DNA from: Bacteroidota bacterium
GTDB lineage: Bacteria; Bacteroidota; Bacteroidia; Bacteroidales; Lentimicrobiaceae
Direction: 5' to 3'
Assembly: GCA_009773455.1 (NCBI GenBank)
Contig: WSXU01000002.1
Span: 124,001 to 188,000, forward strand
DNA: 64,000 bases
The notes below the pieces were generated by a model that saw nothing but the letters and a program-made list of their open reading frames with translations, ran no database searches and had not been told where the DNA came from. Numbering within the stretch: the stretch's first letter is position 1; each line of letters begins with the position of its first letter. This document shows positions 47,812 to 64,000 of the stretch, one piece after another. A program made the translations under genes and the position numbers.

Positions 47812-48522
47812 AGTGTAGGGTTTTAAATGAATACTAAAGCATTAAATAATTGTATTCTGATTTTTAATCGTTATCACACTTCGTAAGCTGTGTGGGGGTC
47901 ATATTCTGATCCCGGTTAAAACCAGGACTATAATTCTATGGTTATTTACGCTATCTCTCCCCTGCAACACCTCCTTTCTTCAGAATTGAATATTATACAA
48001 TAAGGCGATATATTGATTGTTGTGTTTAATTTCATATCAAAAATGCAGGAACCCAATGACCGGATGCCGGGTAAAGCAGCTTTGTGCAAAAACGGGTCAT
48101 TGGAAAAAGAAAAAAAGCCAGAGCTGGAAATAATATTGAGGAACCGAATTAAAAAAAAAGGAAGAGAAGCAATTACAAACAGAAAAGGCAGACAGTAGAG
48201 GAGTCTGTCTGCTATACATACCCGTGTTTTTGCCACGGAAAGAATTGATCCGGCATTCACTTTACTCATGTAACTTCCATTTTACCATTCTGAATTGCCT
48301 GGGGAAAGGGTTCAGAATGTATTGGTCAAGCAAAATAAATGGTCAATCCAAAGAAATCCGTACTCGAGTAATACCGGCAATTTATGGGCGTGGATCGGAT
48401 AGCAGAAAATAACGCACCCTGATTACCTTATAATTACGCTAATCTAAAACCTCAATTCTCCCTGATTCTTTTTAACTTCTCAGGATTTTAGCATAGCAGT
48501 GTAATGCGAAGATATAATAATA
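47812..48522 (-). other. Gene-free leader region of the first giant gene
   Basis: About 700 bp with no credible gene; short open frames here lack codon bias and initiation context. It lies between the candidate ECF promoter at 48523 and the ATG at 47811, so it would be a long untranslated leader if that promoter is used. One 16S-tail-like motif is inside (47970-47985). No TAnnTTTG element is obvious close to the ATG. Confidence 0.5.
47970..47985 (-). promoter_or_regulatory. 16S-tail-complementary element in the leader
   Basis: Minus strand TTCTGAAGAAAGGAGG followed by TG. AGAAAGGAGGTG is the exact complement of the conserved 3' end of 16S rRNA (CACCTCCTTTCT). No start codon follows at normal distance; the gene's ATG is about 160 nt downstream. 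A near copy is in the leader of the paralogue at 56922-56938. Confidence 0.45.
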
Positions 48523-48549
48523 GACAATTAAAAACCAGTTTACCCCTAT
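48523..48549 (-). promoter_or_regulatory. Candidate ECF-sigma promoter, copy 1
   Basis: In transcription direction: ATAGGGGTAAA, 10 nt, ATTGTC. A T-tract lies 8 nt upstream of the first box. The same composite with identical spacing occurs at 57339-57365 and 63365-63391. GGGG to TGTC is 16 nt, in the usual ECF -35/-10 range. The intervening 48550-48930 contains nothing recognisable. Confidence 0.6.
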
Positions 48550-48930
48550 TCAATTTCAAAAAAAAATCAACACAAGATTGTTTGCAGACGCTTCTTTTGT
48601 CAGGATTATAAAATCTAACGTTTTACCGGAAATTTGATAAAATTTACAATGCCAATATCATATCATTGATTATTAATTCATTACAAAATTGTTTTCAATA
48701 TATTTCATATCATAGAGCCCGATCAGTAAATGTAAGGATTTGCCTGAAAAAAGGCGCATTGATGAAAATGCGCCGGATATTAACCCGTCATTGTTAATAA
48801 ACCCGCAGGCTCATACCATGTTAATTCATTGAAATACTACAGCCATGTATTGAAGATCTGTGCATTACGTATTTATTAGAGCATAAATTGAGTTATCAGT
48901 TACCCGCAGTACTAAAATATAAGCAAAAAT

Positions 48931-48958
48931 AAAAGGGGCCCCTTCCGGAGCCCCTTTT
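48931..48958 (-). terminator. Terminator of the second giant surface-protein gene
   Basis: Minus strand AAAAGGGGCTCC, loop GGAA, GGGGCCCCTTTT, then ATTTTTG. It is a near copy of the hairpin at 39193-39220. Confidence 0.85.
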
Positions 48959-48978
48959 GAGAAAAACCGATTGAACGA

Positions 48979-51900
48979 TTATTTGGTCACAACAACTTTC
49001 TTGGTGAAGCTTTCGCCGGCGCTGGTGATGAATTTCACCAGGTAAGCACCAGATTCGTAGTTGCGTACATTCAGCTGAATGGTCTGAGCTTTGGTAACAT
49101 TCTGCTCATAAACAACCTGACCAACATAGTTGTAAACAACTACCTGGCTGATGTCGTTGGTGAGGGCAATGTTTACAACGCTGTTAGACGGGTTCGGATA
49201 AACTGAAACGGCATCTTTGTCAAGGTTGTTTACGTTGCTTACGAAAATACATTCTTCATTTGAAGGAAGTGATTCGCAATCTTCATAAACAGCAGTTACA
49301 ACGTAGCAATATTCGTTTCCGATTTCAACGGTTGCATCAACGTATTCAGTTTCAGCAGTGTTGCCGATGAGGGCACCGTCACGCCATACATTGTATCCAA
49401 CGAGTTCACGACCGGCAACGGTAGTGTTGTTGGTTACAGTTGCGCCCGGAAGCATCGGGAGGTTACCGCGGACAAGCTGTGAAGCAGGTCCGTATACGGT
49501 GTTGTCAGTAATTGGCTGCAGAGCAGTTACACCATCAACACTTTCTACATAACCATTGAGGTTCCAGTTATAGTCAAGACCGTAAGCGGTTGACATTGAT
49601 TCCCAAACAGAACCGTCGAGTGAAATCATATCACCAAATCCGGCTACTGCAGGACCAGCATCACAACCTGCTACGTATGAACCTGCAGCGTGAGTAACGG
49701 TATAACCAAACCACAGTTCGGTAGCACCGGTTACAGCAACAGGAGAAGTAAGGGCGAATTCATTCCATACACCTTCGGTATAGGAAGCAACCGGCTGGGT
49801 AAGAACGAGGGTGCTTGCATTGGCACCAGTCCATACTTTCAGTGCGATGGTTCCACCTGCAGCATATGGGAACATGCGGATCTTGGTAAGACTTGTTCCG
49901 GCATACTGAGCTAACTGGGCAGGAGTAAACCTTACAGCAACACTGAAGGTACCACCATTGGTGAGACCGATAGCATCGTTGTTGGTTCCGTTATCCCATC
50001 CAAGCCATGCTGAAACACCACCACCACCACCGGTAGGAGCTTCCCATGTAAGGAGAACCTCATCAACTGCCGGGAAATTAATGGCAGCTACGAGATCAAC
50101 CGGAGGAGCACATACGCGATAGATGCTGATATTGTCAACGAGCCAGTTGAAAATGTCGAGTGTGTTTGCACCGTTGGCGGTGAAACGTACGCGGAATACA
50201 TTACCCTTGGCTAAGCTGGTCAGGTCTACAGTCTCGGTTGTCCAGTCGAAAGTGGCTGTATTCTTGAATTCGCCAACTTTAACCCAGGCACCACCATTGG
50301 AAATTTCAACTGCGAGGAATTCCTCTTCGGTTGCATTTACAAGAGTGTGTTTGAGATCGAAGTCCATCATAATCTTACCATCAATAATACCACTACCAAT
50401 CATATAGAAGCTGGTGAGCGACTGTGTATAATCGGTTACAGCAGGATTGTAGTAGAATTCAACTGAAGGAGCATCGTTGCCAACCTGGCCGGCGATTCTC
50501 CAGTTACCACCGTCAACAGTCCACTGGTTTGTTTCGAACAATCCGGTGTTGAAGTTTTCGGTGAAAGGCAGTTCATAACCATAGGAAATGGTAACATCAA
50601 CCGGACCTTCGATCATTGATTCACCGGTCTGACCAGCAAATCCGTAAGGAGTCAGGTCATAAACAGCAGTAATATGATAGCTGTAGGTACCTGGCATCAG
50701 GTTAAGATCGAAATACTCAAGCGCTGGTTTTTCAACATAAGCGGTAAGAGCATTGTCGCGATAGATATTGTAACCAAGGAGGTTAGCAGGGGTAAGTCCA
50801 CCACCTGAACCGGCATCGCCGAGTTCGAAAGCTACGATGAAGTTAGGATCCTGCTGAATGTTTGCAAGAAGTACGAATTTGCCCGGTACAAGGTTGTTGA
50901 AAGTGGCAAGACCACCGGCAAGACCTGCGTTGAAACCAGGAACTGTAGAAGCATCATGCATAACACCGGTAAGAGCAAGTGTCTCAGTGCTGAACTGATG
51001 AATGTCGGCACCGTTTCCACCCTGATCAAAGATCCAGAGGAAAGGACCACCTTCAGTATTGCCGTCCCATGCTGAACCGTACATTCCGGTAAACGGAAGA
51101 CCGCTTACTGTCTGCAGGGTAGCACCTGTCATGCTGATCTGTGCAAGGTCTGACCAGTTACCTGCCCAGAAACCTCCGTTACCACCGTCGGCGGTAGGAT
51201 CGAATGCAATGTGACGTACACTAACGCCTGAGGTAGTAATTGTACCGGCAAGTGTCTGAGTGTTGAAGTCCATTTTGTAAATGGTTGTACCGGCGGCACC
51301 ACCATAGAAGAATTCACCATCATAAGCCATATCACGGACGTTGGCTGCACCTGAAACGGTGAAGTCTTCAACCCATGTACCATCAATCTGGTATTTACCG
51401 AAATTGGTACCCTGCCAGTTTGAAATATAGATGAATTCACCGTCAGTTTCGATACCTGGTAAGCTGGCAGCCTGTGCGTTGAATGAGAAGAGAACATCCC
51501 ACAATTCGCGTGAACCACTGTTGTTGGCATAAGTTACATTGGTAACCATCGGGCTGTATTCAACTGAGCTCAAAGGCATTTCTGTACGTGCAACAGGAGT
51601 AGAAGCTGTGTAGTCAGCAGGAGTTACAGGAGCAACCCAGGTAAGGTGAGCATAGTCGGTCTGAGCCGGGCTTTCACCTGCGAGGTTGGTCGGAGGAATG
51701 AGGTAAGTGCAGGTAAACCTGTATGTGTCAAGTTCTGAGTAGCCTGAGCTGAACAGAGCGGCAACACCGGCGAGGTATTCCTGACCGTAGTTCAAACCTG
51801 AATAGGTATAAGTTCTTTCAGGAGTATTGTCAACGAGGGTACCATCAAGGAATACGCCGTAACCCTGTAAAGGAACGCCGCCTGATGCGATCTGAACATC

Positions 51901-54900
51901 GTCAACTGCCCAACCTGAAGCCCATTCACCATTGTCATCAGCGTGGAATGCCAACCAGACACTGCCTAAACCGGCAGCACCCGAGAACTGTGCGAGGTCA
52001 ATTTCAAGATTCTGCCATGCACCAGGTGCAGGGGTCAGAGAGTTGATAACTGTCCATGTAGCACCAGCATCTGTACTGATTTCAACATAAGCACTCTGGC
52101 TGTATGAACCATCATAGTAACTGGCAAAATTCAGTCTGTATGAAGGAAGGTTTGTCCAATCCATTTCCGGAGTAATGAGGTAATCGCAGCAACCGTCACC
52201 ATTATCGGCGTCGTCGTTGGTTACAGCATACTTGGTATGAGCAGGAATAGCAAATGCAGAGCTGCTTCCGTTGGTAGTTGCATACCATCCGGTAGTGTTC
52301 TGGGTAAGTGCCTGCCATCCGGCCGGTGGGAATACAGCACCTTCGAAATCTTCGGCAACTGCAATTGCAAGAGGCTCGTCCCATGTAGCTACAAGGGTAA
52401 GACCATCAACATAAAGGTTGCGAGGCATGTATTTACGCTCGAGAAGCAGAATGTCGAAAGTACGGTTTGAAGTGATGTTCGGGGTAAGTACGTAATCATC
52501 GAATCCAACTTTGCTGGCTTCAAGGATATAGTTACCTTTCCATACGTCTTCAAATACAACGGTACCTGATTCAGGAACAGTCTGTGTGTAAACAGCATAA
52601 GGATAATCCTGACCAGCGAGGCTTACTACAGCACCTGCAGGGCTGCCACCGGTAGTGAGGCTTACATTACATGTTACATCAACAAGAAGTTTATGACCAA
52701 CGATGTTTGAGAATACTTTTACAGACTCACCGCCATTGGTATAGTTGGCTGCAACTGCATAAGCATACCAGCCCTGGGCCAATGGGCCATAAGCTGCATC
52801 GGTGTAGTTGGTATTGGCAACAGTTCCGCTGAGCAGGGTAAGTGTGCCGAGTTCGGGACCATCATTAGGATCGAAACCGGAAACACGCCATACTTTATAA
52901 CTGGTAAGGTCGCGGGTTGAAGCGCCATCCTGAATTGCCAGGAAACGGCCTTGTCCTTCAACACCTGACTGAGCCAGGGCGGGAGTCTGAGAAATGAGAC
53001 CACGCTGTTTCAGCGGAGACCTGCTAACGTTAGCTGCAAGAGTTGCATCGTCACTGTCAACCGGTCCGCTCATAAAGGCGCGGATCATCATATCCTGGTA
53101 TGGAGAGAGACCCCAGTTGCCACCGGTACCCACGTTGCGTGAATAGCTGCGGTAAACAGTCGGGAGAGTCTGGTCGATACCTACAGGAGCGCAGTTTGGT
53201 GAAACAGCACCCTGAACCATTCCAAGATAGAAACTACCACTTGCAACAACTGCATCCAGTCCGGTGAAATCAACCCAACCGAGGTTGTTTACAGTAACTG
53301 AAATTGAATCAAGTGTAGTACCTGGTAAACCATTGGCGCCATCAGCTGCATAAACAACTGCACCAAAAGTGGTTCCGAGGAAGCCGGTATTGTTGTTCGG
53401 GAAAGTACCGTCGCCTACGAAAATCCTGCCACCGTAAACGTGGGCGGGATAACCGGCAGGGGTAAATTTCACTGCATTTACGTTGCCGGGGAGTGCCCAT
53501 GCAGCATAGTTTTCAGCTGTTCCGTCATCATAGAGAGCTTCATAAGAAGGTTCGGGAACACCCCAGGTAACGTCGGTCTGTGTATCGTCAGCATTTACAA
53601 CTGCATTTACAAGGGTCGGAGCATAGAAGATTTCCTCAAGCTCAGCGTTAACGACTGTGGTGTTGGTTTCGGTAACCTCAACTTCAGACTCATATACTGA
53701 AGTATAACCAGTCTTAGAGAAAGACATGCTATAGGTACCGGCATCAACGATGATTGAATAGTTACCTTCTTCATCTGTACTGGCAGTGTAAGGACCGGCA
53801 GTTACAATAGCGCCATGGATAGGAGCATTGTCATCAGCAGCAGTTACATTACCTGAAATCATACCCGGGTTGTAAACCACCATGGTAGCAGGAATCATAA
53901 CGGTCTCATTGGCGAGGTCGTTGGTTGAGAGTTCGAGCTCATTGGTGTATGTTCCAACAGGGAAATCTTCGTCATCAGAAGTGAAAGTAGCAACAACGTC
54001 AACAAATTCGCCCGGGGCAACCTGGCCCTGAGCAGGAACTACTGAAGAGATAAAGCTAGGAGTGGGAAGTCCAATCCAAACAGCTTTATTGTTTGCTACA
54101 TAAGCACTGTTGTAATTGATGTTGGTTGCGATGGTTCCATCAGCGTTCTCAATTCCAACGGTTGCGCTGAGGATATCCAGACCACCGGTGATTGAGTTGT
54201 AATAGATAGAAACATCACCATTCTGGTTCAGACGAACCTGAGCGGTAATCTGGCCTGTTCCGCCATATTCATTGTAATTGTTGAACTGGATGACAAACTC
54301 ATTACCAATGGTCTGATAACGAACGGTACCGGAAACTCCGGGGTTAAGGTCATCCCAGAACCATGCGATCACATCATTCGGAGTTGATGAACTCGGGATG
54401 TTCTGGTTGCTCAGTGATGTACTGCCGCTTCCGAATGAAAGGAATCCATTGGAACCAACATATACCTGGCTGTAAGTGTTAGCATAGAACGGGAAGTTGA
54501 TACCGAGGCTGATCGGGCCAACATAACTGTCGTCGGTTAAACCGGTGAGCAGGGTTCCTGTTGCGCTGATGTCATTCCATACGTAAGCTGGTCCGCCATC
54601 TTCGTCACTGTCGATCCACATGTAGCCGAATCCGTCAGGTCCGCCGGCACCACGAAGGTTACGGTTACCCATGTTATCGGTAGGATCAACTTCGCCCTTA
54701 CCTACTTCAACTTCTTTAACAGTTGAACGTACGTTCGGTGTGAAACCAGGTGAACTTACAAGCTGACGTGCAGCATATTCAGGGAATGTATAAGCCAGTG
54801 TTCCTTCACCGGTGTTTGAAACGCGGAAAGTAACAGCTTCACTTGTATTGGGATATTGTTCGTTGTAGAGAGAAGTTGGGTTCAACACGAGGGTCGGGTT

Positions 54901-56811
54901 AGCCCATTCTATGATAACAGGTCCTGCAGGTGCAGAGTTTCCTTCATCATAAACAGCCTGAACGGTGTATGAATAAACACCATAAGCAGGAAGTGTTTCA
55001 GTGAAAACAGTATTGGCAGTTGTACCAACCTGAACACCGTTACGTTTTACGATGAAGAACTGGAAAGCACGGTTAGCATTAAATGACCATGCAAGACTTA
55101 CATCACCTGAAATAGGGTTGGTAATGTTGGCTTCAAGTTCGAAAGGAACTGCAAGGGCTACGCCGCTTACGGTCATCGAAACCGGAACAACAACTGTACC
55201 TACGTTAGGAGTAGATGTGAAAGTAATTTCGGCAGTTTTTACAGTACCGGTAGTAAGTCCGGTAGCATTGAATGCCAAAGGAACATTGAAGTTGGTATAT
55301 GCAGCAACGCTTCCTGTAGCCTGACCGAGGGTTAACCATGAGTTAGGACCTGGTGAGGTATAGTTTACAGAAGCAGTCCATCCAAGAACACCGTCACCGT
55401 TGTTGGCGATATTGAGGGCGCCATCAACAAGTTCATTCGGGTTAGCGGCTACACTGTATGGATTCGGTGTAACAGCCATAGAAGGACGAAGCATCAGAAT
55501 ATTCTGGTAAGTTGTTACACTCGGAGCAACAGTTACATTCATAACGGTATTGTTATAAGTTGCCAGAGAAGCGGTCAACTGATAATTACCGGCTGAAATC
55601 AGTGAGAACTGATAGAAACCATTGGCAGCTGAGGTAGTTGAAAGGGTGGTAAGTCCGTTATAGAGAGAAACATTAACACCTCCCAAAGGAATACCAAAAC
55701 CATTGGTTGTGTAACCTTCAAGTGAACCAATACCAAGGGTAGTGGTAAAATTGTATGTTGCATTTCCAGTAGCATTACCCACTGTGTTGTAAGGAACAAT
55801 CTGCCAGTTATACAGTGTGGCTGTATTCAGCGGAGCAGCCGGAGTATAGGAAAGTACATTTCCTAAATCGGTTCCATTAGCGATATTGGTCGGGGGTAAA
55901 TCAGTTCCCATATAAACCCTGTAACCCTGGGGAGCACCACCACCGTCGCCGGTATTGGGAGCCCAGTTAAGGCTTACTGTTGTTGGCATACCAGAAGCAC
56001 CATTGGTTGGTGAGCTGTAAACAGCTGCCAGCGGCGCCATTGGGCCAAAGGTATAGGTAAGACCATCAGCAGGATAAATGGTATTCAGGAAAGTCATCGT
56101 AGCTGTATTGACAGTACCTGGGGTTGAGGCTGCCCAGCTTGTGGTTGATGACCTGTTGATGAATTCAGTAGCAGCAGCACCACCTAAGCCAACCTGACAG
56201 GTTGAAGAGGTTGTGTTGAAAGTTGCAGGACCATAAACGAACTGAACCATATTGGTGGTTTCGTTCAGCCTGATCTGGAAGTTGAAAGCATCACCGGTGG
56301 CGGCATATTTGCGGAAGTTTTTCCACTGGATAACGCAAACCCTGTTGGGAGCGCTGCCAATGGTTTCGATGCGCAAAGTAGAGCCTGTCTGACCAGCGAG
56401 GTCACGTCCAAATCCGGCAGCCCTGTTACGGTGAATCGGATTGGTAGGAATGGTTGTTGAACTCAGCGGGGTATATGAGCTTGAAGTAGCCATATCCACT
56501 GCAGGTGTCAACGCACTCTGACCAAAGGTGATCCAACCGTTGTTGTTGATACCGATACGGTCAAATGTAACTCCGTTGAAAACGAAGCTAAATCCGATAG
56601 GAAAACCGACACCGGTTAATGTTGTACCTCCAGCCGGAACGGCGGGGTCAACATAACGCTGATCGTCGGAAGTCTCTGACCCAAGCGACGTACCTCCGGA
56701 AATTTCAGTATAGGTTCCGTTTGAAGGCATGAACCCATAAGAAACAAACTGAGCATACGAGTTTCCGGCAAATAATAGAGCCAGAAGCATAAGCGTAAGT
56801 AGTTTTCTCAT
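48979..56811 (-). CDS. Giant T9SS surface protein, paralogue 2
   Basis: 2610 residues, intact. Signal peptide MRKLLTLMLL to NSYAQ. N-terminal beta domain (about 25-260) with NNNGWITFG, then FN3, a carboxypeptidase-regulatory-like repeat (GSLEGYTTNGFGIPLGGV), FN3-like repeats, a second NGFLSFGSG-type beta domain, another regulatory-like repeat (MISGNVTAADDNAPIHGA), and a block ending [12 protein letters not shown] shared with paralogue 1. Next are a choice-of-anchor J domain ([10 protein letters not shown]), a propeller-like module in place of paralogue 1's second anchor domain (about 50786-51625), FN3 and a sorting domain (YPNPSNSV). DNA identity to paralogue 1 is very high in the C-terminal third, with a 78-nt perfect match. 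It is probably an adhesin or scaffold on the outer surface; no enzyme motif was found. Confidence 0.9.
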   Translation of the reverse strand: MRKLLTLMLLALLFAGNSYAQFVSYGFMPSNGTYTEISGGTSLGSETSDDQRYVDPAVPAGGTTLTGVGFPIGFSFVFNGVTFDRIGINNNGWITFGQSALTPAVDMATSSSYTPLSSTTIPTNPIHRNRAAGFGRDLAGQTGSTLRIETIGSAPNRVCVIQWKNFRKYAATGDAFNFQIRLNETTNMVQFVYGPATFNTTSSTCQVGLGGAAATEFINRSSTTSWAASTPGTVNTATMTFLNTIYPADGLTYTFGPMAPLAAVYSSPTNGASGMPTTVSLNWAPNTGDGGGAPQGYRVYMGTDLPPTNIANGTDLGNVLSYTPAAPLNTATLYNWQIVPYNTVGNATGNATYNFTTTLGIGSLEGYTTNGFGIPLGGVNVSLYNGLTTLSTTSAANGFYQFSLISAGNYQLTASLATYNNTVMNVTVAPSVTTYQNILMLRPSMAVTPNPYSVAANPNELVDGALNIANNGDGVLGWTASVNYTSPGPNSWLTLGQATGSVAAYTNFNVPLAFNATGLTTGTVKTAEITFTSTPNVGTVVVPVSMTVSGVALAVPFELEANITNPISGDVSLAWSFNANRAFQFFIVKRNGVQVGTTANTVFTETLPAYGVYSYTVQAVYDEGNSAPAGPVIIEWANPTLVLNPTSLYNEQYPNTSEAVTFRVSNTGEGTLAYTFPEYAARQLVSSPGFTPNVRSTVKEVEVGKGEVDPTDNMGNRNLRGAGGPDGFGYMWIDSDEDGGPAYVWNDISATGTLLTGLTDDSYVGPISLGINFPFYANTYSQVYVGSNGFLSFGSGSTSLSNQNIPSSSTPNDVIAWFWDDLNPGVSGTVRYQTIGNEFVIQFNNYNEYGGTGQITAQVRLNQNGDVSIYYNSITGGLDILSATVGIENADGTIATNINYNSAYVANNKAVWIGLPTPSFISSVVPAQGQVAPGEFVDVVATFTSDDEDFPVGTYTNELELSTNDLANETVMIPATMVVYNPGMISGNVTAADDNAPIHGAIVTAGPYTASTDEEGNYSIIVDAGTYSMSFSKTGYTSVYESEVEVTETNTTVVNAELEEIFYAPTLVNAVVNADDTQTDVTWGVPEPSYEALYDDGTAENYAAWALPGNVNAVKFTPAGYPAHVYGGRIFVGDGTFPNNNTGFLGTTFGAVVYAADGANGLPGTTLDSISVTVNNLGWVDFTGLDAVVASGSFYLGMVQGAVSPNCAPVGIDQTLPTVYRSYSRNVGTGGNWGLSPYQDMMIRAFMSGPVDSDDATLAANVSRSPLKQRGLISQTPALAQSGVEGQGRFLAIQDGASTRDLTSYKVWRVSGFDPNDGPELGTLTLLSGTVANTNYTDAAYGPLAQGWYAYAVAANYTNGGESVKVFSNIVGHKLLVDVTCNVSLTTGGSPAGAVVSLAGQDYPYAVYTQTVPESGTVVFEDVWKGNYILEASKVGFDDYVLTPNITSNRTFDILLLERKYMPRNLYVDGLTLVATWDEPLAIAVAEDFEGAVFPPAGWQALTQNTTGWYATTNGSSSAFAIPAHTKYAVTNDDADNGDGCCDYLITPEMDWTNLPSYRLNFASYYDGSYSQSAYVEISTDAGATWTVINSLTPAPGAWQNLEIDLAQFSGAAGLGSVWLAFHADDNGEWASGWAVDDVQIASGGVPLQGYGVFLDGTLVDNTPERTYTYSGLNYGQEYLAGVAALFSSGYSELDTYRFTCTYLIPPTNLAGESPAQTDYAHLTWVAPVTPADYTASTPVARTEMPLSSVEYSPMVTNVTYANNSGSRELWDVLFSFNAQAASLPGIETDGEFIYISNWQGTNFGKYQIDGTWVEDFTVSGAANVRDMAYDGEFFYGGAAGTTIYKMDFNTQTLAGTITTSGVSVRHIAFDPTADGGNGGFWAGNWSDLAQISMTGATLQTVSGLPFTGMYGSAWDGNTEGGPFLWIFDQGGNGADIHQFSTETLALTGVMHDASTVPGFNAGLAGGLATFNNLVPGKFVLLANIQQDPNFIVAFELGDAGSGGGLTPANLLGYNIYRDNALTAYVEKPALEYFDLNLMPGTYSYHITAVYDLTPYGFAGQTGESMIEGPVDVTISYGYELPFTENFNTGLFETNQWTVDGGNWRIAGQVGNDAPSVEFYYNPAVTDYTQSLTSFYMIGSGIIDGKIMMDFDLKHTLVNATEEEFLAVEISNGGAWVKVGEFKNTATFDWTTETVDLTSLAKGNVFRVRFTANGANTLDIFNWLVDNISIYRVCAPPVDLVAAINFPAVDEVLLTWEAPTGGGGGVSAWLGWDNGTNNDAIGLTNGGTFSVAVRFTPAQLAQYAGTSLTKIRMFPYAAGGTIALKVWTGANASTLVLTQPVASYTEGVWNEFALTSPVAVTGATELWFGYTVTHAAGSYVAGCDAGPAVAGFGDMISLDGSVWESMSTAYGLDYNWNLNGYVESVDGVTALQPITDNTVYGPASQLVRGNLPMLPGATVTNNTTVAGRELVGYNVWRDGALIGNTAETEYVDATVEIGNEYCYVVTAVYEDCESLPSNEECIFVSNVNNLDKDAVSVYPNPSNSVVNIALTNDISQVVVYNYVGQVVYEQNVTKAQTIQLNVRNYESGAYLVKFITSAGESFTKKVVVTK

Positions 56812-57338
56812 TTTTGTTGTTTTACTTGATTTAATTAAACATTAAATTTAAAGTTAATCTATTCCATTACCGCCGAAACGGCACTATGAAATGCTTTGAT
56901 TCGTTCGTCTTGTAAGCTTTTCCTCCTTTCTGTCAGAACGACAATTAATTGTTTGTATTTCTATCTGAGTTGTTTCTATCCTTTTGACCACCCCATTAAC
57001 CAATCTGCTATGGAAAAATTAATGTTTTCAGTGGTCGGCAATTTCAAATACCATAAAAAAAATAACCGGTAACCCTGCTTGATTCAGGCTTACTGGTTAA
57101 TGTCTTATTCTGCAATGATGGTAAAAATGTTTGCCAAGTTAAACAAGTTTTACTGGTATTGGCGCAATGGTCAGATAACGGATCAACACTCAGGTGTTGT
57201 TTCTTTACCTCAACGACAGGCCCCTTTATCATCAATCGGCAATTATGTTAATAATACCCGGAGATACTTCCCCGGGCTTGAATTAATCTTGAATCCAGGC
57301 ATTCTTTACAACTGGTAAACTAACCTTCTGTATCTATA
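56812..57338 (-). other. Gene-free leader region of the second giant gene
   Basis: Roughly 520 bp without a credible gene, between the candidate ECF promoter at 57339 and the ATG at 56811. It contains the 16S-tail-complementary element at 56922-56938. Short open frames here are judged spurious. Confidence 0.5.
56922..56938 (-). promoter_or_regulatory. 16S-tail-complementary element in the leader, copy 2
   Basis: Minus strand TTCTGACAGAAAGGAGG. It shares TTCTGA-(C)AGAAAGGAGG with 47970-47985, and both leaders have AGCTTACRA further downstream. No ATG follows within about 20 nt. Confidence 0.4.
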
Positions 57339-57365
57339 GACAATCGAAAGTGGATTTACCCCTAT
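57339..57365 (-). promoter_or_regulatory. Candidate ECF-sigma promoter, copy 2
   Basis: In transcription direction: ATAGGGGTAAA, 10 nt, ATTGTC, with a T-tract about 9 nt upstream. It would drive the giant gene starting at 56811 with a leader of about 520 nt. The rest of the gap to 57733 shows nothing further. Confidence 0.6.
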
Positions 57366-57733
57366 CCCAAACCGAAAAAAAATCATTTTTTTACATCGGC
57401 CTGTCTGGTTACTTGATTCCGTTCAGGATTAATGACAAAAATCACAAAAAGTCATTCAGAAATCGCAGAATCTGCGAGGTTCTCACAACGTTATTACGCA
57501 AAAATCGCTGTAATATACATGAACCCCCTGAAAAATCAGCACAAACAGCACTATTTCCGTATGAAAAGTCCGGATTTCAGGCGCAAATATAATAATTTAC
57601 TGATATCTCAGGCAGGGTAAGTAAAATTTAACAACTTTTATAAATACTGAATGCCCGAATCCTGAAAAATGACCGGTGGAAATGAAATTGGATGCAGCAG
57701 AGCTGAAAAAAGCAACAAAGAGGATTGCAGAAG

Positions 57734-60700
57734 TTACCTAACTACGGTAAGTCTTGCGGTTAATTTCCTGCCACTAGCGGTCGAGATCACAACCATATAA
57801 AATCCGGCCTTCAGACCGGAAATATCCGATTCACAACATCCGCCGGTTATACTCGATTGCATTGTACTTACCTTAACTAGCCTGCCATCTGTTGTAAAGA
57901 ATTTTATTTCAAACTGCTCAAGTGGATCAGTTATCAGAGGATTAAGCCATACTTTATCTCTTGCCGGATTGGGAAACAATACCACATTTTCCAAAGCGGC
58001 CCCGGTCTCCTGAAGTGTGATTTCGATGGCTTTCTGATTCACTGTCAGCTGAATTCCTTCTATCCCGCTGTTGGCGGGTGATAGGGTGATCAGCGGCGAC
58101 AGACTGTTTGTATATCCGGCCTTTTCCCCCCATAACCTGTAATTTCCGAAAGGTAACTGATTAAAATGGAAAGATCCGTCCGAAGCAGTGAGTGTCCATC
58201 CAAAAATCCTGCTAAAGTCCGGATTCATAAGCAGAACAACATGATTGGCGGCCGGAAGTCCGTTTATACCGTCACCTTCGAAAAAACCACCTGTAAACCA
58301 TGGTTTACTGTATATACTGTCATCATCTCCGGCTTTTCCAAGATAACTGAAAAATCCACTGATAGACCCTACTCCCGGAGGCAGCTGATCCCCCGTTTTT
58401 AAAAGGTCAATATCCACATCAAATACATCCGTTTCAAGCGGTAACAGATATGCATTCTGCCAGGAATAACTCCCGGCATAATAGGTTGGCAGATAATCCG
58501 GATAGGAGGAAGGTTCGTTCAGGGCAAAAAGGTAATAATGGCCGGTTGCCAGATTTATAAATCTGAATGAGCCATCAGGCATCGTGGTAACCGTTGATAC
58601 AGCTTTCGCACCTGCAGCACCTGCTTTAATTGCTACAATTACACCATCGGAAACCGGATTCCCATCGCGGTGAATTCTGCCGTTGATGCTGTAACTGGGG
58701 ATGATAACCAGCAACATGGTATCATTCAGGTTGCCGCAATCCGACTGAAGGGATAAAATCAGCTGAACAGCACCGGCAGCAATATCTTCTATGCCAGGCT
58801 GATACAGGGTATGCACGGCATCGGGCGTTGTAAAAACCCCGTCACCCTGCGATATCCAGTTTACCAAATTAAAATTGCCGGCAATGGCAGAATCAGTTGA
58901 GTATGCGTCATGTTGATTTACCGTGGTATCATTTCCAGCGAATGCATAGGGTTCACCATTTATGTCTAATTCAATTTCATCTGAAATTACCAGACCGGAA
59001 GTAAAAAGGCTAATATTCAGCACCACTGAACCGGTAGCATTATCAACCTCACCGGGGGTATAGGTTGTGTTTAACATTTCAGGGTTGTCGAATATCCCAT
59101 CGCCCGATGTGGTCCAGATCAGCGTCTGATCACCCAGTGAGGTCGCATATACCGCCGTATAAGCAACTCCCTGACATACAGAAGTGTCGGCTCCTGCATA
59201 AGGTCCGGCTAGTGCAGGGCTGTATGCACTTTCATGACCTTCAGGCTGATCGGTATACCCATCTGCATCATCATCATAGGCAGTTACCGCTATCGGGTCG
59301 AACAACGACAAGTTCTCAAAGACATAAGAAGTGTCTGCCCCTGCATCAACAAATCCGCTGAATCCGTTCCCTGCCTGGTTACCAAAATACACCCTGTAGC
59401 CTGCAAGATCAGCTTCAGTATTGTTAATCCAATCAACTTTAACCTTAGTTCCGATAAGTCTCTTTACCACATTCCGCGGTTTGCTGATCGGAGATTCAGG
59501 ATCAGGATCATCAAGCATCGGTTTATAAATGACCTCTCCATAAAAGTCATTGTCGTGTGAATCAAAGATCAGGCTGTCAATCGCAGTAGTGTCATTTGTG
59601 CCCCACCAGTTGCCTGTGGCCAGAATATCATCGTCAAAATGGTTGACAAAGACGTTGGTATCCCGGCTACCTGTGATTGAATTGGAAACCAGCGGTTGCT
59701 GAGGACCAGCCTCAAACAAAAAGGCTTCATTCTGATTACCATACAGGGAATTATAAGAAAAAGTATTGTCAATAGAATACTTGAAATCCTTATGAGTTAC
59801 CCTGATCCCGCTTGTATTATTATAAAGCCCGTTGGTTGAAATGAGGTTGCCATCCGAACCATCGGTAAGGGTGAGCCCCCAGGCTGTATTGTTCTGTATA
59901 AGATTGTTTATCACATGATTACTACTTGCTTTTGTCAATAGTAATCCTGTTACATTCATTTCAATCAGGTTTGCTCTCAGGGTATCGGCATCCTGGGAAA
60001 GTTTAATGCCAATATCATTGTTTTGAACAACATTGGATTCTATCAGGTTAAAACCGATATCAGATGTTCCGCCATTTCCTATGTGAAGGCCAATGTTGTT
60101 ATAGGATACGGTATTACCGCGTATGATGTTGTATTGAAGGCTACTTTGCCCCATACTCATAAAAAGGGCAATGTTGGTGTTATAACTCAGATTATTGTTG
60201 GTAATCCTGTTATGCCGGCTGATATTGTTGGAAGGAAAGAAAATTCCGATATCACAGTTGCTCACCATACAGTTGTCAACCACATTGTATCCGGAATTCT
60301 TAACATACATCCCGTAACTGCACTGGTCAATGGTCGAATTGAGAAGGTGGAGTTCGGCTCCCGTCTGCAGGTATACCCCGTAATCACCGTTGGTGATGCT
60401 GAGATACTCAGTATACAATTTTGCTGAATCACCAAGAACAAGTGCGGTTGTAGTCTGGTTTACAGAGGCATATTCAAGAATGCTGCCACTTACGTAGTTC
60501 CCGTTATTATCAATCACTGTTTTGGAAAATGTGAAATTGATTCCGTCCCATTTTTTATCTGTCTGGGCATCAAACAACACCGGTAGAGCAGCCTGCCCAC
60601 GGGCGATGATGGTTCCACCTTCTGCTTTAAGGGATGTCCGGATCATGAAAAAAACGTGGGTACCCGGTTCAATCGTAAGGGTGATACCTTCCGGAACAAT

Positions 60701-60856
60701 CAGAGGCTCGATAACGATATAAGGATTAAGCGAAGGGGAAAAAACGGTATTTTCCGTAAGCAGACCACCCACATATTCCTGGGCAGACAACCGGGGAACC
60801 AGGCAAACTACCGCAACAGCAACGATCGCAATAAGCTTTCTTACCGATTTTACCAT
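57734..60856 (-). CDS. T9SS protein with parallel beta-helix and Ig-like domains
   Basis: About 1040 residues from the start MVKSVRKLIA (60856), which gives a clear signal peptide ending RLSAQ; a longer in-frame start at 60964 adds 36 residues before it and is rejected. The N-terminal half is a right-handed parallel beta-helix (PbH1/NosD-like) with repeated short strands such as SYNNIGLHIGN and ESNVVQNNDIGIKL. An FN3-like segment follows (NTEADLAGYRVYFGN), then two Ig-like repeats (ADTSVCQGVAYT and DTTVNQHDAYS), carboxypeptidase-regulatory-like segments and a sorting domain (LFPNPARDKVW). The function is unknown; beta-helix folds often bind or cleave polysaccharide, but no catalytic residues can be assigned. 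Confidence 0.85.
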   Translation of the reverse strand: MVKSVRKLIAIVAVAVVCLVPRLSAQEYVGGLLTENTVFSPSLNPYIVIEPLIVPEGITLTIEPGTHVFFMIRTSLKAEGGTIIARGQAALPVLFDAQTDKKWDGINFTFSKTVIDNNGNYVSGSILEYASVNQTTTALVLGDSAKLYTEYLSITNGDYGVYLQTGAELHLLNSTIDQCSYGMYVKNSGYNVVDNCMVSNCDIGIFFPSNNISRHNRITNNNLSYNTNIALFMSMGQSSLQYNIIRGNTVSYNNIGLHIGNGGTSDIGFNLIESNVVQNNDIGIKLSQDADTLRANLIEMNVTGLLLTKASSNHVINNLIQNNTAWGLTLTDGSDGNLISTNGLYNNTSGIRVTHKDFKYSIDNTFSYNSLYGNQNEAFLFEAGPQQPLVSNSITGSRDTNVFVNHFDDDILATGNWWGTNDTTAIDSLIFDSHDNDFYGEVIYKPMLDDPDPESPISKPRNVVKRLIGTKVKVDWINNTEADLAGYRVYFGNQAGNGFSGFVDAGADTSYVFENLSLFDPIAVTAYDDDADGYTDQPEGHESAYSPALAGPYAGADTSVCQGVAYTAVYATSLGDQTLIWTTSGDGIFDNPEMLNTTYTPGEVDNATGSVVLNISLFTSGLVISDEIELDINGEPYAFAGNDTTVNQHDAYSTDSAIAGNFNLVNWISQGDGVFTTPDAVHTLYQPGIEDIAAGAVQLILSLQSDCGNLNDTMLLVIIPSYSINGRIHRDGNPVSDGVIVAIKAGAAGAKAVSTVTTMPDGSFRFINLATGHYYLFALNEPSSYPDYLPTYYAGSYSWQNAYLLPLETDVFDVDIDLLKTGDQLPPGVGSISGFFSYLGKAGDDDSIYSKPWFTGGFFEGDGINGLPAANHVVLLMNPDFSRIFGWTLTASDGSFHFNQLPFGNYRLWGEKAGYTNSLSPLITLSPANSGIEGIQLTVNQKAIEITLQETGAALENVVLFPNPARDKVWLNPLITDPLEQFEIKFFTTDGRLVKVSTMQSSITGGCCESDISGLKAGFYMVVISTASGRKLTARLTVVR

Positions 60857-60980
60857 CCGTTGGTTAACTAAGTGGCCCGGAAACACGGGTTTTAAAACTT
60901 TGCCTGATCCCGGATCAGGACACAATCTGCTATAACGGCATCTGGTCTTCTGAAAGAAAAACACATTGGCCGGACAAGTG

Positions 60981-60988
60981 CAAAGTTA
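60981..60988 (-). promoter_or_regulatory. Candidate -7 element of the beta-helix gene
   Basis: Minus strand TAACTTTG (TAnnTTTG) starts directly after the TAG stop of the upstream STN-barrel gene, 125 nt before the ATG at 60856. It suggests the gene can be transcribed independently of the sigma/fecR operon. Confidence 0.45.
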
Positions 60989-62284
60989 CTAAAATTTATA
61001 GACCAAACCGGCTCTGATGCCGAAAGAGCGGTTACGAACATCAACCGGAAAGTCGGAAAGCACCGAACTAAAGTGCTGTCTGTAAGTCAATCCCGCGTCG
61101 AAAGTAAGCCTTCCGTTTACCGGGACCAGGATTCCGGCTCCGAACAGGTATGAAAATACAACGGGCCTGAAATTGACTTCACTCATTTCCGTGACACCAT
61201 CCCCTTCAGGTAAAATCATCAACCCTTCACTTCCTGCATGAAAGCCGGCAATTATACCGGCCTTGACATAAACCAGGCTTCTGCCGGCAGGATGGCTGTA
61301 TTGCAGATATACCGGAATTTCAAAAAACCGGTGTTTTACAGAAGTTTTATATCTGTTTGCCTGGATATCTTCAGGAATATAGGAAGAGTCAATAACATAA
61401 TACCAGGCAGTATCGGCTTCAATCAGTGTATAGTAAGCATCCAGGGTATCCTTCCGGAAGAAGCCCCCCGTTGAAGTTTCGTAGCTGTAATCAAATTTAC
61501 CCTTGAAGGCAGTAAAGGTTAAGCCTGTGCCTAATGAAAACCGGGCGTAATGTAACTTCAGATCGACGCCAATCGAACCGGAAATCTGACTTCCCGAGTT
61601 GGAGTTCCTGTATTTTTCCAGCTTCTGCTGATACTTTTCCGGGCCATCGTAAATGGGATCGACCATAAGCCAGGAAAGGGAAAATCCGGGTTCAAACTTC
61701 AGTGTCTTTGTCTGTTCCTTTGACAGGTTTGTCTGGTTTGAAAAAATATCCTTTCCTGTTATCGGGTTATCACGGAGAATTGTACGCATCATATAAACCG
61801 TATCGAATTTCGTGATGGTATCTCTCAGGGCAATGGTATCGTGCCGGATGCTGGTTTTTGTAATGAAGACTGTATCAGGGGCCGGCTGCCCGGCATCTTC
61901 GCTGCCGGATGTCTCCTTTTGAGCAGATTGTGGCAATGGAAGTGTTGACGGGATTGATTTGCGGAAAATGACCACCTGCTTTCCTGAAAACCTGAAACCA
62001 AAATTATCGGGTGGAAGGATTACATTGAGTGCCTCTGCAAGGGTTTTATCCTTCATATTGAGGGATATGGGCTTTGATGCTTCAATGTGATCGGGGTTAT
62101 AGGAGAAAGTGATTCCGGTAATTCTCGATAATTTGTCGAGTACCAGGGAAATCGGTTCATTCACCGCTGAAATGGAAATATTATGGTCCGGATTCTTTTG
62201 CTGCGCTGCAGAAAGCAGTGGCAGATGGCAGCAAAGCCACAAAAACAAAATGAACAACTTCTGGTTCTTCAATGATGACTTCAT
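60989..62284 (-). CDS. STN-domain outer-membrane beta-barrel protein
   Basis: 431 residues with a signal peptide ending LLSAAQ. An STN (secretin/TonB short N-terminal) domain spans about 35-110, with SLVLDKLSRITGITFSYNP and LAEALNVIL. After a Pro/Ser/Thr-rich linker comes a C-terminal beta-barrel of the OMP_b-brl/PorT type (about 200-431) ending in Phe (AGLVYKF). In FecA-type signalling the STN domain of the receptor contacts the periplasmic part of FecR. Here the STN sits on a barrel with no TonB plug or TonB box, directly downstream of fecR (45 bp gap). It therefore looks like the signal receiver of this sigma/anti-sigma system. The ligand is unknown. Confidence 0.83.
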   Translation of the reverse strand: MKSSLKNQKLFILFLWLCCHLPLLSAAQQKNPDHNISISAVNEPISLVLDKLSRITGITFSYNPDHIEASKPISLNMKDKTLAEALNVILPPDNFGFRFSGKQVVIFRKSIPSTLPLPQSAQKETSGSEDAGQPAPDTVFITKTSIRHDTIALRDTITKFDTVYMMRTILRDNPITGKDIFSNQTNLSKEQTKTLKFEPGFSLSWLMVDPIYDGPEKYQQKLEKYRNSNSGSQISGSIGVDLKLHYARFSLGTGLTFTAFKGKFDYSYETSTGGFFRKDTLDAYYTLIEADTAWYYVIDSSYIPEDIQANRYKTSVKHRFFEIPVYLQYSHPAGRSLVYVKAGIIAGFHAGSEGLMILPEGDGVTEMSEVNFRPVVFSYLFGAGILVPVNGRLTFDAGLTYRQHFSSVLSDFPVDVRNRSFGIRAGLVYKF

Positions 62285-62329
62285 CTGGGAAAAACCACCG
62301 GTCTGACTCGGGGAAAAAATACGGATGGG

Positions 62330-63334
62330 CTAGTGCAGGATGATCAATTGGCCATTCTTTTCAGCTTTAATGCTGAAAATCAGGGAAATGGTCTCCAGTA
62401 CTTCATCCAGGGATTCTTTCTCAAAGCGGGCAGTCAATCTTTGGTTCAACACTTCCCGGTTATCAACGATAAACCTGGTTTGATACTTGTTTTCAAGCGC
62501 TTTGAGAACATCGGCCAATCTGGATTCCCTGAAAGTAAGGATACCTGTTTTCCAGCTGAGTACATTCAGATCATCATTGACACCTCTGACAATACGCCCG
62601 GATTCAGGGCTGAAAGTAGCCATTTCACCAGCTGAAAGCAAAAGACCTGAACTTTCAATGTTCAGTTCACTGGTTCCGGTAGGATAAACCAATACCTGTC
62701 CGGTATTGACTGTAACCCTCACAAACCCGGAACCTTTCTTTGCTTCTACATTAAAAGAAGTACCAACAACCCTGACATCGAGTCCTGATGCGTGAATCAG
62801 GAACGGCATTTCGCGATCAGGGCTGATTTCAAAAAACGCTTCACCAAAAATAGATATTTCCCTGGAATTACCTGAAAAATGATCAGGATATTTAACAGTG
62901 GAGTTTTTATTCAGAACAACTGAAGAACCATCGGGGAGGTAAAAGGGAGCAGATATTTTTTCAACTGAAGTAAACTGTTTCAGCACGGGTTCTTTCTGAA
63001 AAACAGAAAAAATACCGAAAGCAATCAGCAGAACTGCGGCAATACCAACAGCCACAGAATAGCGGGGAAAGAGTATCTTTCCGGCACCGCTGACAGGTTT
63101 CAAACCCTGACCTGATTCAATTCTTTCATGTAGCTTATTCCAGGCCTTATCTGCATCAAAAGAGACTTTTTTCCTGTCTGTAAGTAATAAAAGGCCCTTA
63201 TAATTCTCATACAAACGACGGTTGGTTGCATTTTTTGCAATCCAGGCTTCAGCCAATTTTTGCTCTTCAGAGGTTGTCTCCCCCTGAATGTGCTTAATAA
63301 TCAGTCGCTTATATTTATTGGTAGAATTGAACAT
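62330..63334 (-). CDS. FecR-type anti-sigma factor with DUF4974
   Basis: 334 residues. A cytoplasmic N-terminal part (about 1-88) has the leading helix with EEQKLAEAWIAKN. One membrane segment follows at about 92-112. The periplasmic FecR domain (about 120-240) contains FYLPDGSSVVLNKNS, FGEAFFEIS and VVGTSFNVEA, and a C-terminal DUF4974 domain (about 262-334) contains LKALENKYQTRF. DUF4974 itself resembles STN folds. FecR-type proteins hold the ECF sigma factor until a surface receptor signals. The gene lies 85 bp after the sigma gene and before the STN-barrel gene. The ECF-like promoter at 63365-63391 lies in that gap, implying autoregulation. Confidence 0.94.
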   Translation of the reverse strand: MFNSTNKYKRLIIKHIQGETTSEEQKLAEAWIAKNATNRRLYENYKGLLLLTDRKKVSFDADKAWNKLHERIESGQGLKPVSGAGKILFPRYSVAVGIAAVLLIAFGIFSVFQKEPVLKQFTSVEKISAPFYLPDGSSVVLNKNSTVKYPDHFSGNSREISIFGEAFFEISPDREMPFLIHASGLDVRVVGTSFNVEAKKGSGFVRVTVNTGQVLVYPTGTSELNIESSGLLLSAGEMATFSPESGRIVRGVNDDLNVLSWKTGILTFRESRLADVLKALENKYQTRFIVDNREVLNQRLTARFEKESLDEVLETISLIFSIKAEKNGQLIILH

Positions 63335-63364
63335 TTAATTTCCGGATATTTTCCTTAACATAAG

Positions 63365-63391
63365 GACAATCAAAATGGCTTTTACCCCTAT
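63365..63391 (-). promoter_or_regulatory. Candidate ECF-sigma promoter upstream of fecR
   Basis: In transcription direction: ATAGGGGTAAA, 10 nt, ATTGTC, about 31 nt before the fecR ATG at 63334. A tract of A/T bases lies upstream of the GGGG box. It is the copy closest to its gene and anchors the motif to the sigma/anti-sigma pair. Confidence 0.6.
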
Positions 63392-63419: not shown

Positions 63420-64000
63420 TCAACAAAGCATATTCAGCATGCTGAAAATCAGCCAAAGAGTAGGTAAATAATCGCGAAGCCGTTCTCTCATGAATTCCAG
63501 CGCCTTCGACATCTGAATTTCAACTGTTTTCAGGCTGATTCCAAGTTTCTCTGCAATGTCATGATAGCGCAATCCTTCCAGCCGGCTCATTTCAAAAATC
63601 ATCCTTCGGCGCTCGGGCATGGATTTTACCAGGCTGATCAGCTGCTTTTCCAGATCACTGTGGACCAGGGCATCATGAACAGAAACCGATTGATGGTCCT
63701 CTGTGCGGAATCCCACATATTCCTGGTATTTCCTGAGGTGACTCTGATATTTAATATGGTTCAGTGAGTGATTTGTTACCGACTTATAGAGGTATGCCGC
63801 CAGAGAGCTGGTAATGATCAGGGCATCGCGGCGTTCCCACATCTTGAAAAACATATCCTGAACCACCTCTTCTGCCACATCAGGATCAATCAGATACCTG
63901 CGGGCATGAACACACAACGGGGCATAGAATTCCCGGAAGACAGATTCAAATACCTTCACATCGCCCTGCTTCAGTGCCAGTAATTTGACTTTGTCCGATT
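63420..64000 (-). CDS. ECF sigma factor, FecI-like, cut by window edge
   Basis: The frame is open to the right edge, so the start codon lies beyond the window; an internal GTG at 63959 is not the likely start, because the residues before it (KVKLLALKQGD) match the usual N-terminus of the family. Region 2 includes VAEEVVQDMFFKMWERRD (core binding and -10 recognition). Region 4 has MPERRRMIFEMSRLEGLRYHDIAEKLGISLKTVEIQMSKAL with the helix-turn-helix for -35 contacts. This is the Bacteroidota sigma-70 family 1 of extracytoplasmic-function factors. The gene is followed by fecR and an STN-barrel gene in the same direction. Confidence 0.93.
   Translation of the reverse strand, partial: SDKVKLLALKQGDVKVFESVFREFYAPLCVHARRYLIDPDVAEEVVQDMFFKMWERRDALIITSSLAAYLYKSVTNHSLNHIKYQSHLRKYQEYVGFRTEDHQSVSVHDALVHSDLEKQLISLVKSMPERRRMIFEMSRLEGLRYHDIAEKLGISLKTVEIQMSKALEFMRERLRDYLPTLWLIFSMLNMLC

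What the first reader, a model, noticed from the sequence alone, without database searches (positions are those of the whole stretch)
48523..63391. Three identical-spacing ECF-like promoters link sigma/fecR to two giant surface-protein genes
ATAGGGGTAAA-N10-ATTGTC occurs three times, all on the minus strand: 48523-48549, 57339-57365 and 63365-63391. The 10-nt spacer length is invariant while its sequence differs, and each copy has an A/T tract 8-9 nt beyond the GGGG box. I saw no other copy when reading the window. One copy is just upstream of fecR, next to an ECF sigma gene; the other two are the first promoter-like signals upstream of the two giant T9SS genes. GGGG-N16-TGTC fits ECF -35/-10 spacing. 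This suggests a small regulon in which a surface-signalling sigma controls itself and both giant surface proteins.
Basis: partly seen in the sequence, partly recalled or inferred. Interest (0 to 1): 0.8.

Follow-up and report, generated by a model that had tools for sequence, protein, structure and literature searches.

The report
Sigma regulon: surface proteins plus RNA
Three repeated DNA signals look like start sites read by one envelope-sensing sigma factor, and in related genomes the same signal also precedes other secreted surface proteins and a probable small RNA, so the regulon seems real and wider than first thought.

Summary
Confirmed: three exact copies of ATAGGGGTAAA-N10-ATTGTC, more than chance gives. 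The own genome has seven clear copies; 16 of 19 same-genus genomes (a Lentimicrobium lineage) hold 70 at ≤1 mismatch, with no reversed-pattern control hits.

All 13 genomes with a sigma ortholog of ≥62% identity have the motif directly after the sigma gene; three diverged ones have variants there. It lies 24-32 nt before fecR in 14 of 14 copies. Other copies precede secreted proteins: 27 of 30 tails scanned match the T9SS sorting domain. Ten precede no evident protein gene but a conserved element of about 70 nt ending in a terminator-like hairpin, usually near argS: a probable small RNA, with no Rfam hit.

Best reading: a FecI-type ECF sigma, signalled through an STN-domain outer-membrane barrel, drives its anti-sigma operon, giant T9SS proteins, a few other T9SS cargo genes and one small RNA. 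'Controls itself' is not supported: the sigma gene lies upstream of the motif. Similar gap promoters occur in other Bacteroidota. No expression data; RNA targets unknown, in-regulon pairing test negative.

The parts
63365..63391 (-). ECF-type promoter in the sigma-fecR gap, expected to drive fecR, STN-barrel gene and beta-helix T9SS gene
   Evidence: Exact; 30 nt before the fecR ATG; same place in 13 genomes with a close sigma ortholog
57339..57365 (-). ECF-type promoter of giant gene 1
   Evidence: Exact; 527 nt before the ATG
48523..48549 (-). ECF-type promoter of giant gene 2
   Evidence: Exact; 711 nt before the signal-peptide ATG
63420..64000 (-). ECF sigma gene, FecI-type; 5' end outside the window (ORF to 64037 in window numbering)
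   Evidence: Pfam r2 and r4; TIGR02985 159.3 vs cut-off 126.4 bits
62330..63334 (-). fecR, anti-sigma factor
   Evidence: Pfam FecR and FecR_C over cut-off
60989..62284 (-). STN domain plus outer-membrane barrel, likely transducer
   Evidence: Pfam STN over cut-off; OMP_b-brl_2 below its cut-off; model with eight long strands; OmpA-like fold matches
57734..60964 (-). Beta-helix protein with T9SS sorting domain
   Evidence: Pfam NosD, Beta_helix, Por_Secre_tail
48979..56811 (-). Giant T9SS protein 1, 2610 aa
   Evidence: choice-of-anchor J and Por_Secre_tail
39241..47811 (-). Giant T9SS protein 2; long ORF 39241-47574, signal-peptide start at 47811, in-frame TAA at 47637-47635
   Evidence: Por_Secre_tail at G000:C98:163253-163465
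56922..56930 (-). GAAAGGAGG in the leader of giant 1
47970..47978 (-). GAAAGGAGG in the leader of giant 2

Best explanation
The motif is the promoter of the adjacent FecI-type ECF sigma factor: -35 region AGGGGTAAA, -10 region ATTGTC, with an A/T tract upstream that may act as an UP element. FecR holds the sigma; a signal on the STN domain of an outer-membrane barrel is relayed to the C-terminal domain of FecR and frees the sigma. The sigma then transcribes (a) fecR, the barrel and a beta-helix T9SS protein, which gives feedback through the anti-sigma; (b) the giant T9SS proteins; (c) a few other T9SS cargo genes; (d) a small RNA, about 110-120 nt if it starts near the promoter and ends at the hairpin. 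Shown here: the motif, its places and conservation, the kind of genes downstream, the RNA's conserved core and its usual neighbour. Inferred: that this sigma reads the motif, the signalling path, and that the RNA is made and acts in trans.
For: Seven copies clear of the noise in the own genome; 70 copies at ≤1 mismatch in 16 of 19 genus genomes and no control hits in the 19. 13 of 13 genomes with a sigma of ≥62% identity have it directly after the sigma gene. Three diverged loci have variants there; in G009 similar variants also stand before the giant gene and the RNA. Distance to fecR is 24-32 nt in 14 of 14. Flanks not used for the search are conserved. 27 of 30 target tails match Por_Secre_tail at E ≤0.01. 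Sigma over the TIGR02985 cut-off. Two RNA loci found by the RNA model alone (G014, G016) carry ATAGGGGTG...GTGTC at the right place. GGGGT-N16-GTC spacing fits ECF promoters (recalled).
Against: No transcription data. G007 has two motif copies, one before the RNA, but no close sigma was found (best E 8.6e-15; 89% complete). Before the giant genes of G014 and G016 only weak matches remain. Genus genomes are related, so counts are not independent. A paralogous sigma of this genome has a similar gap element with another -10, so cross-talk is possible. Two of 71 places have no ORF found downstream (G010:C370, G017:C68). Pairing of the RNA with regulon leaders is no better than chance.
Confidence: 0.85

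Rival explanations
1. The motif is a promoter class read by several FecI-type sigma factors of the cell, so the set is a union of overlapping regulons.
For: Similar elements lie around the end of the sigma gene in 10 of 29 outgroup FecI loci examined (≤3 mismatches of 16) and, with a different -10, at a paralogous sigma locus of the own genome. The F. psychrophilum authors suspected several ECFs behind one motif (PMC9723704, passages). G007 has the motif without a close sigma.
Against: Only one of the seven own-genome copies precedes a fecR; the paralog's -10 differs; G009's promoters changed in a similar way at fecR, giant gene and RNA.
Confidence: 0.2
2. The motif is a binding site for another regulator (activator or repressor) and the promoters proper lie elsewhere.
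For: Giant-gene leaders are long (333-715 nt with the start codon), so another promoter could lie nearer the gene.
Against: Two-block layout with fixed spacing and ECF-like geometry, a fixed 24-32 nt to the fecR ATG, T/A-rich start region, and a place inside sigma-fecR gaps across Bacteroidota.
Confidence: 0.07
3. The argS-side element is only a conserved terminator or a riboswitch-like leader of an unseen gene, not a trans-acting small RNA.
For: It ends in a hairpin with T-run and lies convergent to argS; its pairing partners are unknown.
Against: It follows its own sigma-type promoter by 45-60 nt; the C-rich unpaired core is as conserved as the hairpin; no gene follows on that strand in most loci.
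Confidence: 0.25

Closest known systems
HasI/HasS/HasR of Serratia (review PMC9249621, passages)
   Same: Sigma drives its anti-sigma gene but not itself; the reported -35 region TTTACGGGTTT is GGG-centred; signalling through an STN-type transducer.
   Different: Transducer is a TonB-dependent haem receptor; no T9SS cargo or small RNA is described in the passages seen.
E. coli FecI/FecR/FecA (PMC9249621, passages)
   Same: FecI-type sigma, FecR, outer-membrane transducer with signalling domain; fecIR not autoregulated.
   Different: fecR has no promoter of its own in the account seen; target is an iron transporter.
SigP/PorXY of Porphyromonas gingivalis (PMC4800418, passages)
   Same: ECF sigma tied to type IX secretion.
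   Different: Controls T9SS machinery genes rather than cargo, through a two-component system; no FecR in that text; other proposed motif.
SM6 promoters of Flavobacterium psychrophilum (PMC9723704, passages)
   Same: ECF-type promoter set including a sigma/anti-sigma operon and T9SS genes.
   Different: -10 box CGT; machinery genes; the sRNA Rfp18 of that paper is not said to be sigma-dependent in the passages seen.
B. thetaiotaomicron SigW-1 and SigH-1 iModulons (PMC12596196, passages)
   Same: ECF regulons of Bacteroidota; some promoters with a TGTT-type -10.
   Different: PUL or stress targets; other ECF families; no FecR-gap promoter in the passages seen.
sigma-E small RNAs MicA and RybB of E. 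coli (recalled)
   Same: Envelope-stress ECF sigma that also makes small RNAs.
   Different: Different sigma family; no sequence relation; here no target is known.

Membership tests
FecI-type ECF sigma of Bacteroidota (TIGR02985) | Scores over the curated cut-off | tested here: met
   159.3 vs 126.4 bits
FecI-FecR surface signalling | Adjacent FecR with FecR and FecR_C domains | tested here: met
   for the window; 12 orthologs aligned
FecI-FecR surface signalling | TonB-dependent transducer with STN, plug and TonB barrel | tested here: not met
   STN found; no plug or TonB barrel; model shows a small barrel
FecI-FecR surface signalling | STN domain contacts FecR C-terminal domain | not testable with these tools
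   No complex was modelled
ECF-dependent promoter | Two boxes with fixed ECF spacing, conserved before the sigma's own locus and distant targets | tested here: met
ECF-dependent promoter | Transcription starts just after the -10 and needs the sigma | not testable with these tools
   No expression data
T9SS cargo | C-terminal sorting domain (Por_Secre_tail) | tested here: met
   27 of 30 tails at E ≤0.01; 16 further targets cut by contig ends not tested
Sigma-dependent small RNA | Conserved noncoding unit with own promoter and terminator | tested here: met
   no ORF of 10 or more codons in 4 of 13 loci, G000 among them
Sigma-dependent small RNA | Covarying hairpin | tested here: inconclusive
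   Covariation score above 500 of 500 shuffles, but the number of pairs with two-sided change (3 of 12) was reached in 143 of 500; structure came from the same alignment
Sigma-dependent small RNA | Pairs with mRNAs of the regulon | tested here: not met
   3 of 44 leaders beat all 20 shuffles, about 2 expected; targets outside the regulon not tested except by one strict pattern
Described Rfam RNA families | Match at gathering score | tested here: not met
   0 matches in 9 loci

The most novel reading that the evidence does not exclude
One envelope-sensing sigma runs a two-layer surface programme: it switches on giant T9SS proteins whose long leaders carry a GAAAGGAGG ribosome-docking (STAB-SD-like) element, and also makes a C-rich small RNA (CCCUCCUC) that mimics the anti-Shine-Dalgarno and competes for that element, a built-in brake in a phylum thought not to use Shine-Dalgarno pairing. 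Only 6 base pairs are possible by eye, and the duplex test gave no support.
Probability: 0.08. Interest if true: 0.85.

Novelty: new variant of a known kind. Interest (0 to 1): 0.62.

Why it matters
FecI-type sigmas are numerous in Bacteroidota (B. thetaiotaomicron has 50 ECFs, PMC12596196), and in 2020 no recognition motif was known for any ECF of that species (PMC7366714; by 2025 two were linked to a non-canonical motif, PMC12596196). Here comparative genomics ties a sharp motif to one sigma, and the regulon is T9SS surface cargo plus a probable small RNA, with a plug-less STN barrel as likely sensor. Since similar elements lie at the sigma-fecR gap of other FecI loci, reading that gap and then scanning the genome could decode other sigmas of this family.

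Tried and rejected
Chance: rejected. Strict motif outside the genus: taken as noise; 4 of 22 same-order genomes have one 1-mismatch hit each, and 2 of the 22 have 3 control hits together. A looser pattern in the own genome (GGGTAAA-N9-13-TTGTC) gave 16 matches vs 6 controls; the extra ones were not followed except one near a paralogous sigma. Regulon mRNAs as RNA targets: no signal. A near-full complement of the RNA core: in G000 only the RNA's own site; 3-mismatch sites in other genomes were not examined. Weak RNA-model hits in G008 (E 9e-4) and G010 (E 0.001), better than the G009 hit (E 0.002), have no motif upstream and look like other terminators; I kept G009 because it has the motif variant and argS beside it. 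The 3' end of 16S rRNA could not be confirmed: 0 of 4 genomes had the typed end, and a second pattern in 2 genomes did not settle it.

Rows left out before counts: the four out-of-genus genomes with a hit; from the T9SS tail test, the 14 fecR copies, the 10 RNA copies, 2 places without ORF and targets cut by contig ends (16; one of them, giant 1, and giant 2 were put back from the window). For G000:C20 I used the nearest 135-aa ORF, not the longer one the script chose. Of 80 loci, 5 are of the genus; of the other 75 I examined 29, mostly the best-scoring, and the third gene of 10.
Full report
OBSERVATION. In the whole assembly (4.81 Mb, 159 contigs) there are 24 matches at up to three mismatches: 5 exact, 2 with one, none with two, 17 with three; the reversed-pattern control gives 23. 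At ≤1 mismatch the control gives none. So seven copies stand clear of the noise.

COMPARISON. Of 41 genomes (own, 18 same genus, 22 same order), 16 of the 19 in the genus have the motif at ≤1 mismatch, 70 places in all, and none of the 19 has a control hit. In the fetched DNA I followed 71 genus places (the 70 and one with two mismatches): 14 before fecR, 10 in the RNA cluster, 28 before a complete ORF, 16 before an ORF cut by the end of the fetched stretch or contig, 3 without an ORF found. One of those 3 is giant gene 2 of the window, whose frame is interrupted. The genus is Lentimicrobium by record titles: G013:C102 has the length of JAMLHF010000006.1 (96,493) and G006:C137 that of JANJXJ010000088.1 (6,552), both titled Lentimicrobium sp. 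(G006:C137 length).

SIGMA LOCUS. The order sigma - motif or variant - fecR - STN barrel - protein of 1000-1107 aa - giant gene is seen in 14 of the 17 loci listed, taking the window for G000; the other three are cut. Beyond the window the 1000-1107-aa protein is named by place and size only. All 13 genomes with a sigma of ≥62% identity have a ≤1-mismatch copy directly after the sigma gene (the G018 match has one TGA). In G010 the contig ends before the sigma, but fecR has the motif. In G008, G009 and G015 (sigma 47-53% identical) the gap has TAGGGTAAAA or ATAGGGGTAGG variants with nearly the same spacing. In G009 similar TAGGGTAAA variants stand before the giant gene and the RNA; in G018 three of four copies read ATAAGGG. 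Such shared change is what one common reader would cause. Against this: before the giant genes of G014 and G016 the best match has 4 mismatches of 16, and G015 has none better than 5 there. G003 has neither sigma nor motif (78% complete); G007 has two motifs and no close sigma (89% complete).

PROMOTER ANATOMY. Over 69 of the 70 copies, positions not used to find them are conserved: A+T 87-99% at -16 to -11, T at 76-82% in three spacer positions, a purine at 99% at spacer end, T or A after the -10. The fecR start is 24-32 nt after the motif in 14 of 14. The 20 giant or large-gene leaders I extracted are 333-715 nt long with the start codon. TACATTTG stands just upstream of the sigma ORF and fits the TAnnTTTG box of the Bacteroidota housekeeping sigma (PMC7366714, passages). 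So the sigma is probably not under its own promoter. [quoted passage not shown] and fecIR is not autoregulated.

TARGETS. Of 30 target tails (last 250 residues, or the whole short protein), 27 match Por_Secre_tail at E ≤0.01. The table does not name the three misses; one is likely the 135-aa protein, which matched no family. The own genome has at least 150 such domains, so this is a small part of its T9SS cargo. Among targets are Receptor-L, YCF48/BNR and beta-helix proteins. All 16 cut targets have a hydrophobic, signal-like N-terminus by a crude score (2.2 or more).

SENSOR. The third gene product has an STN domain; its barrel domain scores just below the Pfam cut-off. The model (15 sequences, mean pLDDT 74, pTM 0.51) shows the STN fold, a low-confidence linker (112-170) and eight long strands (my count from the strand list). 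The best Foldseek matches are OmpA-type barrels (E 2.8e-7, TM by target length 0.66). No plug or TonB barrel was found. In 10 outgroup loci the gene taken as equivalent is a TonB plug protein (4), a CarboxypepD_reg protein without plug hit (2), an aspartyl protease-PDZ protein (2) or without family at that cut-off (2). That STN talks to FecR here is inferred from the Fec system.

SMALL RNA. Ten motif copies fall into one cluster without a protein gene evident downstream. After 45-60 nt comes a core: GGATAA, then a C-rich stretch ending in CCCTGATT (in all ten), then a hairpin and T-run. The covariance model finds it at E<1e-7 in 12 of 19 genus genomes, 10 of which trained it; the two new ones, G014 and G016, have ATAGGGGTG...GTGTC upstream. 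A weak hit in G009 (E 0.002) has the motif variant upstream and argS beside it; two other weak hits, in G008 and G010, have neither shown. argS lies on the other strand within 2.5 kb downstream in 10 of 13 loci, nine of them within 0.1-0.5 kb and G006 at 2.4 kb; G005 has only 189 nt held, and G014 and G016 show none in 1.6 kb. Hairpin: covariation score above all 500 shuffles, but pairs changed on both sides (3 of 12) reached by 143 of 500. Short ORFs of 10 or more codons occur in 9 of 13 loci, none common to all, none in G000. No Rfam hit in nine loci. Best hit in 22 order genomes is E 0.017 (stricter filters were used). Pairing with 44 regulon leaders: 3 beat all 20 shuffles, about 2 expected.

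BREADTH. In 10 of 29 outgroup FecI loci an element within 3 mismatches of TAGGGGTAAA-N10-ATTGTC starts between 31 nt before and 144 nt after the sigma stop; a Marinifilaceae MAG and a Bacteroidetes MAG have 1 mismatch, Fulvivirga marina 2. My own estimate of chance is about 0.01 per locus, assuming equal bases. A paralogous sigma of the own genome has TAAGGGTAAA with another -10 before its fecR. So the architecture looks older than the genus, and the -10 may carry specificity.

LITERATURE. Seven searches bear on novelty. Their listings showed no such motif, no FecR-linked regulon of T9SS cargo and no ECF-dependent small RNA of this kind; the held library lacks most subscription papers. Passages only were read of PMC9723704 (with abstract and outline), PMC12596196, PMC7366714, PMC9249621, PMC8103513, PMC4113751 and PMC4800418. 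PMC9976891 was seen as an abstract start in a listing.

SIDE FINDING. All 20 leaders extracted contain GAAAGGAGG with GGAGG at -86 to -164 from the start codon. Genome-wide the 9-mer is near chance (45 vs 38 control). I examined 30 of the 45 own-genome sites; by the script only the giant 1 site precedes a long signal-peptide ORF at that distance, and the giant 2 site does so by coordinates, its frame being interrupted. It resembles STAB-SD, an mRNA stabiliser of Bacillus cry3A that can bind 16S rRNA (PMC4113751, passages; exact STAB-SD letters are recalled). It is odd because Bacteroidia ribosomes are said not to recognise Shine-Dalgarno sequences (PMC9976891).

VERDICT. A well-supported ECF-type promoter set: known in kind, new in make-up (plug-less STN barrel, T9SS cargo, probable small RNA). 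The main gap is expression evidence.

Noticed in passing
window 56922-56930 and 47970-47978 (minus); leaders in relatives: GAAAGGAGG, a full Shine-Dalgarno-like 9-mer, in 20 of 20 giant or large-gene leaders of the genus, 86-164 nt before the start codon; STAB-SD-like and unexpected in Bacteroidota.
   Followed up: partly
window 47635-47637 (minus): In-frame TAA between the signal peptide and the long ORF of giant gene 2: nonsense mutation, special decoding or assembly error.
   Followed up: no
L101 about 2085-2115 (G000:C34): A paralogous sigma-fecR gap has TAAGGGTAAA with a different -10 (GGTGTA), which suggests that the -10 sets specificity among FecI-type sigmas.
   Followed up: partly
window 47946-48269 (minus); L132, L105: An ORF of 103-107 aa in giant-2 leaders of three genomes (MSKVNAGSILS or MSKKYIGSSLS) is alike at its start only: leader peptide or conserved RNA element.
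   Followed up: no
L027 1495-5073 (G000:C141): A T9SS protein gene of 1192 aa lies just upstream of the probable small RNA on the same strand.
   Followed up: no
window 37157-39115 (minus): An ABC-F family ATPase gene follows giant gene 2; an ABC-F-like ORF with a similar N-terminus follows the giant gene in G001 (L108 17059-19005).
   Followed up: no
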